This document shows, piece after piece, positions 51,480-55,879 of a stretch of 55,879 nt of DNA. Under the pieces are notes generated by a model. That model ran no database searches, was not told where the DNA came from, and saw only the letters and a list, made by a program, of their open reading frames with translations. How positions within the stretch are numbered: the stretch's first letter is position 1; each line of letters starts with the position of its first letter. This DNA comes from Gluconobacter thailandicus F149-1 = NBRC 100600 (GTDB taxonomy: Bacteria > Pseudomonadota > Alphaproteobacteria > Acetobacterales > Acetobacteraceae), in the NCBI RefSeq assembly GCF_000964465.1, contig NZ_BANH01000057.1:1-55879 (forward strand), written 5' to 3'. Both the position numbers and the translations under genes were made by a program.

Positions 51480-53678
51480 TCATCCGGTTATGGGCTGGGT
51501 CCACTGACCATATTGGCTGAGCCCGGTAAATTTGGAAGCTGAGGGCTTTTCCTCACTCACGGAAGCATGGCTCTCCCGTTCAATTTTCAGGCCGTCTGCT
51601 GTGAGGCGGAACACGATGTCTGCATGTGCAATGGTTGCAGGTCGATGCGCGACCATAATGCGTGTCTTGTTGAGCTGTCGCAGCGCCTTGGCGACTTTTG
51701 CTTCGGTGGCTTCGTCCAGATGGCTGGTGGCCTCATCAAGAAACAGGATCTGAGGTGCACGATAAAGGGCGCGGGCGAGAAGGGCGCGCTGCTTCTGTCC
51801 GCCAGAAAGGCTGGATCCCATGTCGCCCACAAGGGATTCATACCGCATGGGCATGCGCTGGACATCGTCGTGAATGGCGGCCCGTCTGGCGCAGGTTTCG
51901 ATGAGCGCCTGATCAGGGCTTTCCGAGAACCCGCAGATATTGTCTCCGATTGAGCCGGAAAACAGGCCATCATCCTGGAGCACCCCGGCAATCTGGGAAC
52001 GGTAGCCATCCAGTGTGAGACTGCGGATCTCGGAACCGTCCATAAAGATTTCCCCCTCAGTGGGCTGCTGAAGTCCCATGAGAGTTTTCAGCAGCGTCGT
52101 CTTGCCGCAGCCGGAAGGCCCGACAATGGCCACGCTCTGTCCGGCAGGAATGTCGAAGGACAGGTTCCGGAAAATCCAGGGTCCGTCAGGGCTGTAGCGT
52201 ACGGAGAGATTGCGGACGGCCAGACTGCCGCGGCCTGCCTCATGAGAGGATGGCGATGGCAGGGGAAGGCCTTGTGGCTCAGGCTCGCTCATGACGATAT
52301 CTGAAAGACGATCCGTCTGGATGCTCAGCATCCGGAGCTTGAAGCCGGTATTGATGAGGCTGCTGATCCGGCCGGCAAACTGGTCCTTGTAGGACAGGAA
52401 CGCCACGAGCATACCGACGGACATATGGCCGCGCATGACCATATTGGCGCCAAGGACCAGCATGATCAGACGGTCTGCACCGAAGATCATATCAGCCAGG
52501 CGACCAAAGATCAGATCAAAGCGCTGGAGCCGCAGGTGAATGTTCATCGAGTCAATGACGCTGTTCAGCCAGGCTGTCTGACGCCGCTCCCGAAGGTTCA
52601 GAAGCTTGACGGTGGCCATGTTGCGCAGGGTTTCGATGAAATGCGTCTGGCTTTTCGCATCCTGTACGACGGCTTCTTCCGAGGCGCGACGGTAGGTGCC
52701 GTAGGTCGTCAGACGCAGAAGAATATCCAGCCCCATGGCCACACAGGCAATGGCGCCGAGCCAGCCGCCATAGAGGAACAGCATCACGCCCATTCCGACG
52801 GCCATGATGCCGTCCAGAATGGTTTGCACGAGGTCGGTGGTTAGTGTGTGCTGAATGGCGGAGAGCGCACCGAAACGGGAAATGACGTCTCCGATATGGC
52901 GCCGTGCGAAATAGTCCAGCGGCAGGCGCGTCAGATGTTCAAAAAGCGAGCCGTTCCATTTCAGGGAGACCCGACTTCCGAACATGACCACGGCCCAGCT
53001 TCGAACACTGGCCACCAGCATCTGGAGCAACAGGAGCACGACCATGGCGCAGGCGACGGTCGTGAGAAGATCGTGGTCTCCTGTGACAAGCACTTCATCA
53101 ATGATGATCTGGCTGACCATCGGTGAGAACAGGGCGATGATTTCCAGGCCCAGAGAGAGTGCAAACAGGTAAGCCAGTGCGGGTTTGAGGCCCGAAACAT
53201 GCCGAAACATGTCCCTGAGCCGAAGGGTTTTGCGCTCATCCTTACGCTCGAAACGTTCGGTCGGTGTGACTTCGAGTGCGACGCCAGTGAATTCCCGTGA
53301 AAATTCCTCCCGACCAATTTCCCGTCTACCCACAGCGGGATCATGAATGATGACGGCCTGCTTCCTGCGCTCTATCAGAACGACGAAGTGATTCATGCCC
53401 CAGTGTAGAATGCAGGGGAGAGTCAGTTTATCGAGGTCTTCAATTTCCAGCCTGACAGCACGGGCGTTGAGACCTACACGACCTGCAACCCCGACAATTT
53501 CCCGCAGGGTTGTTCCTTGAGACGACGTTCCCTGCTGCCGACGAAAGGTGGCAATATCAATGGAGTGACCATGGTATCCCATGACCATGGCGAGGCAGGC
53601 GAGGCCGCACTCAGCCGCTTCGGACTGAAGAACGACAGGAACATGGCGGCCAAAGCCGAACTGGAGATCACGCAGCAT
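51480..53678 (-). CDS. C39 peptidase-containing ABC exporter
   Basis: 732 residues, full-length peptidase-containing ABC transporter of the bacteriocin exporter type. The C39 peptidase covers 1-135 with Cys24 (AECGLACLAM), His97 (WGMNHFVVL) and Asp113 (HDPAVG). Six membrane helices run from about 165 to 450. The ATPase has Walker A GPSGCGKT (520-527), signature LSGGQKQR (624-631) and Walker B LFLDEAT. It would cut a leader after Gly-Gly and export the rest. It is 11 bp after the HlyD gene. All catalytic residues are kept. Confidence 0.95.
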   Translation of the reverse strand: MLRDLQFGFGRHVPVVLQSEAAECGLACLAMVMGYHGHSIDIATFRRQQGTSSQGTTLREIVGVAGRVGLNARAVRLEIEDLDKLTLPCILHWGMNHFVVLIERRKQAVIIHDPAVGRREIGREEFSREFTGVALEVTPTERFERKDERKTLRLRDMFRHVSGLKPALAYLFALSLGLEIIALFSPMVSQIIIDEVLVTGDHDLLTTVACAMVVLLLLQMLVASVRSWAVVMFGSRVSLKWNGSLFEHLTRLPLDYFARRHIGDVISRFGALSAIQHTLTTDLVQTILDGIMAVGMGVMLFLYGGWLGAIACVAMGLDILLRLTTYGTYRRASEEAVVQDAKSQTHFIETLRNMATVKLLNLRERRQTAWLNSVIDSMNIHLRLQRFDLIFGRLADMIFGADRLIMLVLGANMVMRGHMSVGMLVAFLSYKDQFAGRISSLINTGFKLRMLSIQTDRLSDIVMSEPEPQGLPLPSPSSHEAGRGSLAVRNLSVRYSPDGPWIFRNLSFDIPAGQSVAIVGPSGCGKTTLLKTLMGLQQPTEGEIFMDGSEIRSLTLDGYRSQIAGVLQDDGLFSGSIGDNICGFSESPDQALIETCARRAAIHDDVQRMPMRYESLVGDMGSSLSGGQKQRALLARALYRAPQILFLDEATSHLDEATEAKVAKALRQLNKTRIMVAHRPATIAHADIVFRLTADGLKIERESHASVSEEKPSASKFTGLSQYGQWTQPITG

Positions 53679-53689
53679 CCGGGTTCTCC

Positions 53690-54982
53690 TTATCGCGGGC
53701 CAATGGTGGTGGTGGTCAGGGTGTTGCGGACACTGATGACGGGATCAAGGAGCCACTGCCAGAGGTGCCTGCGGTCTGTTGCAATATCGGCAGAAACCGT
53801 CATGCCAGCTTCAAGTGGACGTCGTGTTCCATAGGTCTCGATATAAGTCTGATCTGGTTGGACCCGGATGCGGTAAATATCCTGCGGGGAACTGTTTTTC
53901 TGATCGTTCTCCTGCCCGGAATGAGGTGCCTGCTGCCCTCCGCTGGTGACAGGAGCATGCGTGATCTCTGCAATATGACCATGATGCAGACCGAATTTCT
54001 GGTACGGAAACGCGTCATAGCGCAGCAGGACAGGCTCGTTTTCTTTGAGGAAGCCAATTGAAGCGCTGTTGACGTAAAGCTCGATCTGCAGAGCCTGGTC
54101 TGTCGGCAGCAAGGTCACAAGGGACGTGCCCGCTGCGACCTGTTCACCCAGATAACCGCGGACCCCGGTCAGGATCCCATCTTCCGGAGCGAGAACAATC
54201 GTGCTGCGTCGACCTTCGTTCTCCGCAGTCTGCTGGTCGATGGCCGCAATCTGCTTGTCCAGTTCATTCAGGTCGTGGGAGAGCTCGGTATCAAACCGGG
54301 CAAGTTTGGAGGCGAGATCAGAAATCTTGCTTTCCGCGTCAGTGCGGGACTGCAGGGCCTGTGCGTGGGAGCTGAGAAGCTGCGCGTAGGTATAAAGCTG
54401 GCTCTGGAACTGCGTCTCCGTGATCAGATGATTGTTCTGCGCGCCCTGCATCTTTGCCAGAGCTCTCTGAACCAGAGGCAAAACGCTTTCATCATTGGAA
54501 AGCTGGGCAGAGATCTGCTCACGCTGGCGGGTCAGGAACTGGATCTGATTCAGAAGGGCCTGATGCTCGATGGGAGCGGATTTTTCGCGTAAAGCCCGCT
54601 GGTTCTCCAGAAGCGTCTTTTGACGCAAAAGGTCCGCCAGAACCTGCTTCTGTGTCGGTCCGGTCAGGGATGTGGCTTCCAGATCTTCTGTGAAAAGCAT
54701 GTCGCCTTTCTGAACGTGTTGCCCCTCTGTGGCGTGAATGACTGAAATCGTTCCCGGTTGAATGGCGCCAAGTGTCAGGAGGCCGCTCTTCGGCATGACC
54801 TGTCCGGTTGCATGCACGCGACGGGTATAGGTACCAAACGTCAGAAGGAGCACTGTTCCGACGGTGAGAGCCAGACAACTCCAGGCCACAATCCGCACGG
54901 AGAGGGGTTGGCTGATCTGGACACGTCCGAGCCATGCGTCACGACGGGCATCCAAGGCTTCACGGCGAAAAAGAGAACTCAT
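53690..54982 (-). CDS. HlyD-family membrane fusion protein
   Basis: 430 residues. A short basic cytoplasmic start, one membrane helix at about 28-50 (IVAWSCLALTVGTVLLLTFG), a lipoyl half-motif (VHATEGQHVQKGDML), a long coiled coil from about 115 to 265 and the beta-barrel. The C-terminal region has RRPLEAGMTVSADI, an HlyD marker. It links the inner-membrane exporter to an outer-membrane TolC, whose gene is not in the window. Confidence 0.93.
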   Translation of the reverse strand: MSSLFRREALDARRDAWLGRVQISQPLSVRIVAWSCLALTVGTVLLLTFGTYTRRVHATGQVMPKSGLLTLGAIQPGTISVIHATEGQHVQKGDMLFTEDLEATSLTGPTQKQVLADLLRQKTLLENQRALREKSAPIEHQALLNQIQFLTRQREQISAQLSNDESVLPLVQRALAKMQGAQNNHLITETQFQSQLYTYAQLLSSHAQALQSRTDAESKISDLASKLARFDTELSHDLNELDKQIAAIDQQTAENEGRRSTIVLAPEDGILTGVRGYLGEQVAAGTSLVTLLPTDQALQIELYVNSASIGFLKENEPVLLRYDAFPYQKFGLHHGHIAEITHAPVTSGGQQAPHSGQENDQKNSSPQDIYRIRVQPDQTYIETYGTRRPLEAGMTVSADIATDRRHLWQWLLDPVISVRNTLTTTTIGPR

Positions 54983-55039
54983 GGGTAACGATATGAACCA
55001 AGAGAAGTGAAGAGAAAGTAAAAATGCTTAGATAGCAGT

Positions 55040-55071
55040 AAAGGCTCCCCGTTTTTCAACGGGGAGCCTTT
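55040..55071 (-). terminator. Perfect 14-bp hairpin between precursor and exporter genes
   Basis: AAAGGCTCCCCGTT and its complement enclose a 4-nt loop. It lies 52 bp after the precursor stop and 57 bp before the HlyD start. The T-tract on the minus strand is only three bases, so partial termination is likely. This would give more precursor than exporter mRNA. Confidence 0.7.
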
Positions 55072-55123
55072 GGCGTAAATATACTTCGCCAGTCATGACG
55101 AAGCCCAGAAAATCTGAAAGAAA

Positions 55124-55513
55124 TTAGCCGACAGCAGGCGGGAACGTGATTTTGGTGCCGCCATTGGCGATGGAGGTCGAAATCGCGCTTACGACACTCT
55201 TGTAAATAGCGAGACCGTTTGTTGCGCTTTGAGCGCCGATCTGGGCACCAAGCTGGACGTAAGATGCAATGTTCTTGATGTCAGCAGCGATAACGGATTT
55301 GCTTGCGGACTGTGCCAGATCAGCAAATACATTGTAAACGCCAGCCAGATACCCGCTGTATGCGCCTAGCTGTGTTGAATAATAAGAAGCGTAGCTCGCC
55401 GCGTTGCAGCCAAAATTAATTCCGTTTGAAATCCCAAATTGGTAATTATATCTTCCGCATCCGCCAGATACTTCATTTAGTTCTGAAACAGACAGTTCAC
55501 GAAGGGCAGACAT
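55124..55513 (-). CDS. Double-glycine leader precursor, probable bacteriocin-like peptide
   Basis: 129 residues. Residues 1-18, MSALRELSVSELNEVSGG, form a perfect LSxxELxxVxGG leader for a C39 exporter. Cutting after Gly18 leaves 111 residues beginning CGRYNYQFGISNG. Cys19 and Cys36 are the only cysteines and could form a disulfide. The product is rich in Tyr, Ser and Ala; the last two thirds look helical and mildly hydrophobic, ending TFPPAVG. AGGA lies 8 nt before the ATG. The exporter genes follow on the same strand. No known bacteriocin family is recognised, and no immunity protein is nearby. Confidence 0.88.
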   Translation of the reverse strand: MSALRELSVSELNEVSGGCGRYNYQFGISNGINFGCNAASYASYYSTQLGAYSGYLAGVYNVFADLAQSASKSVIAADIKNIASYVQLGAQIGAQSATNGLAIYKSVVSAISTSIANGGTKITFPPAVG

Positions 55514-55839
55514 CTCTGGAATCCTTAGGATAAAACAATCAACTTTCTGCTGTTCTCATATTTCCCTGACTTTTTTCTAAGAATTATCAAAGAGATTTCT
55601 CAGATGCGAAGGAAGATGCGAACTGGCGAAGAGTGGGCATCGAATTAAATGAACATGATGAGTTTTCAAAGATAATAAATCGTTAAAGGTAAAAAATTTA
55701 TAAATAATTTTCATTTCTGTGAGATAATCAAAAAATACCTTTTTTAAAGACTCTATTTGATGGTGAGCAACGTAGGATTCCCGCTATAATTAGTTCGTTA
55801 ATGTACCTGATCGTTCGTTCAAAGAGGTCGGATTCTTAA
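55514..55839. other. AT-rich region upstream of precursor gene
   Basis: No gene is recognised on either strand. The DNA is sharply AT-rich, unlike the rest of the window, and should hold the precursor promoter. The contrast fits transferred DNA. Confidence 0.5.
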
Positions 55840-55879
55840 GAGCCTGTTTGGAAAATCACGGGTGAGCATTTCTGCGCAT
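55840..55879 (+). mobile_element. Candidate IS5-family terminus at window edge
   Basis: GAGCCTGTTTGGAAAATC resembles the outer inverted repeat of some IS5-family elements, and the TTAA just before it (55836-55839) would fit their target choice. The rest of the element would lie outside the window. Assigned from memory of the pattern. Confidence 0.4.

What the first reader, a model, noticed from the sequence alone, without database searches (positions are those of the whole stretch)
51480..55513. Complete C39 exporter locus with a double-glycine precursor of unknown type
A 129-residue precursor with a textbook LSxxELxxVxGG leader sits directly before an HlyD adaptor and a full PCAT exporter with intact C39 triad. 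The 111-residue product starts with Cys right after the cut and has one more Cys at position 18 of the mature form. It is longer than a usual class II bacteriocin and resembles no family I know. No immunity protein, modification enzyme or regulator is visible. Such systems are little described in acetic acid bacteria.
Basis: partly seen in the sequence, partly recalled or inferred. Interest (0 to 1): 0.85.

Follow-up and report, generated by a model that had tools for sequence, protein, structure and literature searches.

The report
Secreted peptide paired with intein-like protein
Acetic acid bacteria carry an apparently undescribed secretion locus whose small exported protein is inherited together with a self-cutting (intein-like) partner protein, a pairing that may reveal a new way bacteria build or use molecules outside the cell.

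Summary
In detail: a 129-aa precursor with a double-glycine leader, an HlyD adaptor and a complete C39 exporter. The precursor belongs to an uncharacterised family: 33 proteins in one profile search, the named ones all Gluconobacter or Acetobacter. Its core is predicted as three helices.

The window is a whole contig ending 366 bp upstream of the precursor in an insertion-sequence end. In relatives a divergent Hint (hedgehog/intein-type) gene lies there; this genome holds it at another contig's end with the same IS repeat. All 10 exporter-linked Acetobacter loci fetched share the layout Hint, precursor, HlyD, C39. The Hint protein's N-domain was found in 17 of 127 Hint proteins compared, 16 of them tied to this precursor family; 23 other Hint genes had no GG precursor in their stretches. 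No immunity-gene candidate appeared.

Best reading: a vertically inherited two-part secreted system with a microcin-type exporter. Pairing rests on comparative genomics only; whether it kills neighbours or builds a surface structure is open.

The parts
55460..55513 (-). Double-glycine leader (18 aa, MSALRELSVSELNEVSGG)
   Evidence: leader pattern in 25 of 25 aligned family members; no nonsynonymous change v G013
55127..55459 (-). Mature secreted protein (111 aa): variable Cys-containing N-terminus, then a core predicted as three helices (precursor residues 38-67, 72-95, 97-116)
55124..55513 (-). Whole precursor gene
55040..55071 (-). Strong G+C hairpin between precursor and hlyD, attenuator-like; by eye a strong hairpin stands in this gap in all 14 loci folded, with different stem sequences (no shuffled control)
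53690..54982 (-). HlyD-type adaptor (membrane fusion protein)
51480..53678 (-). C39 peptidase-ABC exporter (PCAT)
55671..55686 (-). Promoter-region motif TTAACGATTTATTATC; the pattern TTAACGANTTNTTATC occurs exactly twice in the held genome, the other copy upstream of the Hint gene on contig C187
   Evidence: the pattern was drawn from these two sites; at 3 mismatches one match in the window is not above shuffled expectation
55837..55839 (.). TAA, probable 3-bp target duplication of the IS (matched on the flank at the C187 end)
   Evidence: sequences, read by eye
55840..55879 (+). End of an insertion sequence (inverted repeat GAGCCTGTTTGGAAAATC) at which the contig stops; it separates the precursor from its Hint partner gene (G000:C187:215667-217412)

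Best explanation
A dedicated two-part secretion locus of acetic acid bacteria. Part 1 (genes shown, action inferred): the precursor is cut after Gly18 by the C39 domain and passed through C39-ABC, HlyD and a TolC-type outer-membrane protein encoded elsewhere, releasing an 11.4-kDa protein with a disulfide-capable N-terminus and a helical core. Part 2 (position, conservation and specificity shown; action inferred): the divergently transcribed partner has a locus-specific N-terminal domain, a Hint domain of intein/hedgehog fold with the residues of N-terminal cleavage (Cys240, Thr319, His322 in the A. musti protein) and a C-terminal domain; it most likely cuts itself before Cys240 and frees its N-domain. 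The two products work together at the cell surface or outside. My estimates for the purpose: short-range antagonism in the manner of the Caulobacter Cdz system 0.4; non-toxic surface or matrix structure 0.35; signalling or other 0.25.
For: Precursor, HlyD and C39-ABC are contiguous in Gluconobacter-genus genomes G000, G013, G004, G006 and in all 10 exporter-linked Acetobacter loci fetched, each with a Hint gene of the same type; it is divergent and contiguous in G013, G006 and the 10 Acetobacter loci, while in G000 and G004 precursor and Hint gene lie at the ends of two contigs. The same two genes (edd, eda; named from recall) flank the Hint side in all four Gluconobacter genomes. The Hint N-domain is found in 17 of 127 Hint proteins compared (16 of 115 plus P0055 among the 12 that one search dropped); 16 of the 17 are tied to the precursor family by direct view, identity, species or contig length (P0055 by identity to the others only); the context of P0049 was not seen. 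23 other Hint genes in 16 stretches of 3 genomes: 0 GG precursors in the stretch (the pattern finds 25 of 25 known ones). Hint genes lie within about 10 kb of the exporter in 9 of 36 genomes (1.46 expected); without Gluconobacter, where the link was first seen, 6 of 29 (1.06 expected, simulated P 3.7e-4); by genus, Gluconobacter included, 6 of 22 (1.37 expected, P 6e-4). Motif copies only upstream of these two genes in 3.43 Mb. Hint model matches BIL and intein structures, best E 6e-6. OEP (TolC-type) domains in the genome.
Against: No experiment shows secretion, cleavage or contact of the two proteins. The Hint+C part of the linked proteins is not one clade (5 changes needed; shuffled mean 16.8, 0 of 500 shuffles as low), so recruitment or swapping happened more than once. 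25 of the 36 exporter genomes show no Hint gene in the fetched stretch (several stretches are cut by contig ends; G000 and G004 have theirs across a break). The motif pattern was drawn from the sites it then finds, lies on the other strand relative to the Hint gene, and has only degenerate copies in most Acetobacter loci. The N-domain is poorly predicted: pLDDT under 50 for residues 114-139 and 159-237. P0055, with the N-domain, lacks the CFxxG start of the Hint part by pattern.
Confidence: 0.62

Rival explanations
1. Ordinary class II microcin/bacteriocin: a diffusible antibacterial peptide with a CvaAB-type exporter; the Hint gene has no role in it.
For: GG leader, PCAT and HlyD are the microcin export set (PMC9746304, passages). 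Of 25 family members 8 match Bacteriocin_IIc and 5 MccV, best E 9e-4, 9 match a class IIb bacteriocin model, best E 0.001; one A. conturbans member is named Bacteriocin in UniRef; carnobacteriocin B2 at E 0.19 in a PDB profile search. Several GG precursors beside related exporters look Gly/Ala-rich and bacteriocin-like by eye.
Against: No immunity candidate in the gene spaces (13 loci) or within 3 kb (14 loci). The second Acetobacter precursor stands alone at one site in 9 of 9 loci fetched, without exporter or Hint within 7 kb. Core under strong purifying selection and constant chromosomal place, unlike many bacteriocin loci (recalled). Hint pairing is specific.
Confidence: 0.25
2. Non-toxic surface or matrix component: the peptide coats the cell or joins a pellicle or biofilm, with the Hint protein as processed anchor or scaffold.
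For: No immunity candidate; same chromosomal sites across species; some Hint paralogues are named antigen 43 or autotransporter-repeat protein by their sources; Cys/Gly/Pro/Ser-rich variable N-termini.
Against: Nothing here tests adhesion; leader and exporter match the bacteriocin pattern; no convincing PDB match to the core by fold or profile.
Confidence: 0.3
3. Chance neighbours: Hint genes are numerous (13 in this genome) and the divergent layout is accidental.
For: 32 of 36 genomes searched have Hint_2 genes, up to 18 each.
Against: Same layout in the exporter-linked loci of this precursor family in two genera; N-domain specific to the locus; adjacency above expectation in genera not used to find it.
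Confidence: 0.04

Closest known systems
Class II microcins with CvaA/CvaB export (e.g. microcin V)
   Same: GG leader, C39-ABC exporter with triad, HlyD adaptor, TolC-type protein from elsewhere, peptide of about 100 residues
   Different: No immunity candidate found nearby, no confident sequence match, divergent Hint partner, constant chromosomal place, second orphan precursor in Acetobacter
Cdz contact-dependent system of Caulobacter (PMC5380434, passages)
   Same: Alphaproteobacterial; small proteins exported by type I secretion; two proteins (two or more family rows in 11 of 13 Acetobacter genomes); a short GxxxGxxxG stretch (G50, G54, G58) in the first helix
   Different: Mature part 43% G+A+V+I here against 75% in CdzC/D; no counterpart of CdzI found; Hint partner
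Hint_2 / BIL / Hedgehog-type autoprocessing proteins
   Same: Hint fold, Cys1 and TxxH motif of N-terminal cleavage
   Different: Locus-specific N-domain; the intein C-terminal His-Asn splice motif is not seen (by eye), so cleavage rather than splicing is expected; paired with an exported peptide
NHLM/NHLP-type RiPP exporters (TIGR03796, TIGR03797)
   Same: The exporter's best NCBIfam match is TIGR03796, 524 bits
   Different: Under the curated cut-off of 853 bits; the precursor matches no NCBIfam model; no modification enzyme was recognised beside it, though neighbouring ORFs were only partly annotated

Membership tests
Class II microcin | Precursor with double-glycine leader | tested here: met
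Class II microcin | PCAT with C39 catalytic triad | tested here: met
Class II microcin | Membrane fusion protein beside it | tested here: met
Class II microcin | TolC-type outer membrane protein available | tested here: inconclusive
   28 OEP-domain matches in the genome, none shown to serve this exporter
Class II microcin | Cognate immunity gene near the precursor | tested here: not met
   gene spaces of 13 loci and 785 small ORFs within 3 kb in 14 loci: the hydrophobic ones shared by three or more loci lie over the precursor or over the flanking 754-aa gene in other frames. In G000 and G004 only the side up to the contig end was seen; distant immunity genes not excluded
Class II microcin | Sequence match to a verified microcin core | tested here: inconclusive
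   window protein: 0 families; 5 of 25 members match MccV, best E 9e-4, probably by the leader
Class II microcin | Antibacterial activity | not testable with these tools
   needs bench work
Cdz system | Two small glycine-zipper proteins | tested here: inconclusive
   one member of this family in the genome, with a short zipper only; other GG peptides elsewhere in the genome were not sought
Cdz system | Membrane immunity protein CdzI type | tested here: not met
   with the limits told above
Cdz system | Surface retention and contact-dependent killing | not testable with these tools
   needs bench work
Hint_2 autoprocessing protein (partner) | Hint fold and PF13403 | tested here: met
Hint_2 autoprocessing protein (partner) | Catalytic Cys1 and TxxH | tested here: met
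   C240 nearly invariant, T319 and H322 invariant in 41 rows; their role is recalled
Hint_2 autoprocessing protein (partner) | Self-cleavage shown | not testable with these tools
   needs bench work
NHLM/NHLP RiPP export | Exporter over the TIGR03796 cut-off | tested here: not met
   524 against 853 bits

The most novel reading that the evidence does not exclude
Natural expressed-protein ligation: C39 cleavage leaves a peptide with an N-terminal cysteine (21 of 25 family members), the Hint partner activates its own N-domain as a thioester, and the peptide's N-terminal Cys attacks it, so that the secreted product is N-domain joined to peptide by a native bond. Weakness: four members have no Cys at +1 (P0007, G006, A. 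sacchari, A. nitrogenifigens), and for three of these a Hint gene of the same type is seen (not looked for with P0007); the Hint-linked precursors of other families have no Cys at +1.
Probability: 0.06. Interest if true: 0.92.

Novelty: new variant of a known kind. Interest (0 to 1): 0.62.

Why it matters
Acetic acid bacteria are prominent in vinegar, kombucha and insect guts, yet the Acetobacteraceae gene-cluster survey read here assigns the acetous RiPP clusters to two major groups, DUF692 and linocin M18 (PMC8776678, section 18), and a Bombella study reports no bacteriocins by BAGEL4 (PMC9147383, passages), although Bombella loci here carry GG precursors beside a C39 exporter. A conserved pairing of a C39-exported peptide with an autoprocessing Hint protein would give a testable role to one group of bacterial Hint proteins and would add a partner that the microcin scheme of PMC9746304 (passages) does not list.

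Tried and rejected

Papers, what was seen: PMC9746304, PMC5380434, PMC3482391, PMC2765452, PMC9147383 passages only; PMC8776678 passages and section 18, where a passage also mentions Hint-domain proteins beside a PKS gene in Asaia; all others search listings only.

Rows dropped or not examined: of the 26 rows, 20 places were fetched; of the exporter genomes, G226 was not fetched, nor the second exporters of G155 and G153; of 33 proteins not all were read, and 25 family rows were aligned; one search left out 12 of 127 Hint proteins (looked at).
Full report
Observation. The precursor, HlyD and C39-ABC genes are as described. The exporter has the C39 domain with C24, H97 and D113 invariant in 8 relatives, and by eye the ABC motifs are intact. 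HlyD and C39-ABC are 11 bp apart; precursor and hlyD are 141 bp apart with a strong hairpin between them, and by eye a strong hairpin of different sequence stands in that gap in all 14 loci folded, which would fit more peptide than exporter being made (inference).

What the window hides. The window is a complete contig, G000:C135, and the precursor starts 366 bp from its end. The last 40 bases begin with GAGCCTGTTTGGAAAATC, found at 18 places in this genome, 14 of them within 41 bases of a contig end (the contig lengths for the other 4 were not looked up): the end of a multi-copy insertion sequence. The same repeat ends contig C187, next to a Hint gene 87% identical to the one that stands divergent to the precursor in the near relative G013. 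A TAA is found at the IS edge on both sides (read by eye). The same edd/eda genes (named from recall) flank the Hint side in G000, G013, G004 and G006. So an IS has probably been inserted between the precursor and its divergent neighbour in this strain; this is inferred from two contig ends, not read across. In G004 the two genes also lie at two contig ends, for a reason not looked into. That the genus is Gluconobacter is inferred from named homologues and from a contig length shared by G019 and G. aidae.

The precursor family. A single-sequence search found 4 proteins, those with a name being Gluconobacter; the profile found 33, the named ones Gluconobacter and Acetobacter. Among 100 genomes, the window's own included, 6 matched the single sequence: the window's own, G013 (93%), G004 (80%), G006 (44%), and weakly G038 and G054. 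Twenty-five sequences were aligned: leader in 25 of 25; Cys directly after the cut in 21 of 25; at least two Cys in every mature part; a variable Cys/Gly/Pro/Ser-rich N-terminus; then a conserved core (GYLAGxYNVxAD ... ITFPP). AlphaFold2 gives three helices with high confidence for the core and low confidence before it; the five models differ in quality (mean pLDDT 74.8 to 41.8). Between G000, G013 and G004 the core has dN/dS 0.01-0.10 and the mature N-terminus 0.22-0.45 (simple counts).

Acetobacter. Of 49 genomes of that genus 13 have the family, 11 of them with two or more rows (some rows partial). Twenty of the 26 rows' places were fetched. Ten are exporter-linked and all ten have Hint, precursor, HlyD and C39 in one layout; nine are orphan second precursors beside genes that look like queC and queE (names recalled), with no exporter or Hint within 7 kb; one is a third type. 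The ten loci share a flanking 754-aa gene (not found in the A. sacchari locus L103) with weak BTAD and Trans_reg_C matches just under the Pfam cut-offs, a candidate regulator. Named examples are A. musti, A. sacchari and A. estunensis.

The wider exporter group. Relatives of the exporter at E 1e-130 or better are in 32 of 200 Acetobacteraceae genomes, beside many different GG precursors. In the genome-contig scan 8 of the 80 loci kept (of 544 confirmed) had a Hint gene within about 10 kb, all 8 among the 13 that are Acetobacteraceae by their titles. G005 has a related exporter (78%) with a glycine-rich cargo and a Hint protein whose N-domain does not match the locus type; G038 has three tandem GG precursors beside a Hint gene about 170 kb from its exporter. 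G019 has the exporter, cut by the contig end, with no precursor of the family and an aspartyl-protease-like gene before hlyD.

Is the Hint link real? The 36 genomes are those without G226, plus G013, G004, G006, G005 and G019; the observed list was entered by hand. The fair test leaves out Gluconobacter, where the link was first seen: 6 of 29 against 1.06 expected. Relatedness inflates this, so the per-genus count (6 of 22 against 1.37, Gluconobacter counted as one genus) is safer. Expectation used the counts and rounded genome sizes, with a 20-kb span although some stretches were shorter. The strongest evidence is specificity: the N-domain (about 240 aa) is found in 16 of 115 Hint N-termini and in P0055 among the 12 left out there. 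Of these 17, five were read from loci beside a precursor (P0008, P0009, P0013, P0014, P0015), P0055 is tied by identity only, the context of P0049 was not seen, and the others match a precursor-bearing genome or contig by identity, species or contig length. Twenty-three other Hint genes in 3 genomes had no GG precursor in their stretches; the leader pattern used finds all 25 family members and ten other precursors. Against it: the Hint+C part of the linked proteins falls in several groups, so that part was swapped or recruited more than once.

The Hint partner. PF13403 with E 3e-29 in the G013 protein; the A. musti model matches BIL2, BIL and inteins; Cys240 is nearly invariant and Thr319 and His322 are invariant in 41 rows. 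No His-Asn splice end is seen in the alignment consensus (by eye), so N-terminal cleavage, as in hedgehog proteins, is the expected reaction (recalled chemistry). No N-terminal hydrophobic signal is seen by eye, so its way out of the cell, if it leaves, is unknown.

Mechanism. Shown: gene content, conservation, leader, exporter, partner, specificity. Inferred: cleavage after Gly18, export, disulfide, Hint self-cleavage, joint action outside. Purpose is open between contact-range antagonism and surface structure. The lack of an immunity candidate, constant chromosomal sites and an orphan paralogue speak against a plain diffusible bacteriocin; the export set, the weak bacteriocin-model matches of family members and the glycine-zipper stretch speak for something of that kind.

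Known or new. Export works like that of class II microcins, and the biology may be like Cdz, but no immunity gene of either kind was found, so membership is not claimed. The searches named in Tried and rejected found no description of the family or of its Hint pairing.

Noticed in passing
L029:2540-10093 (Gluconobacter-genus genome G001): Another C39 locus: HlyD, C39-ABC, a second C39-like protein (by eye), a protein with a radical-SAM-like Cys motif (by eye) and a 95-aa precursor ending its leader in ISGG; looks like a radical-SAM RiPP cluster.
   Followed up: no
L119-L122, L083 (Bombella): GG-leader precursors beside the C39 exporter in Bombella genomes, a genus for which a genome study (PMC9147383, passages) reports no bacteriocins by BAGEL4.
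   Followed up: partly
L018:7735-8888: Three tandem glycine-rich GG precursors directly beside a Hint gene in G038, with the exporter about 170 kb away.
   Followed up: partly
L211, L212, L214, L217, L219, L221, L224, L225, L227: Orphan second precursor at one site beside queC/queE-like genes (names recalled) in nine Acetobacter genomes; possibly a two-peptide partner exported in trans.
   Followed up: partly
L028:5776-6804: In G019 an aspartyl-protease-like (RVP, E 4e-6) gene lies before the hlyD gene where the precursor would be expected.
   Followed up: no
L077:7152-7451: GG precursor whose mature part holds repeats of IHHPDGYVATPA.
   Followed up: no
L086:5634-6241: Two near-identical GG precursors with a polar, Asn/Gln/Tyr-rich mature part.
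   Followed up: no
window 55840-55879; 18 places in G000: IS inverted repeat GAGCCTGTTTGGAAAATC, 14 of 18 places within 41 bases of a contig end: this IS probably explains a number of the contig breaks.
   Followed up: partly
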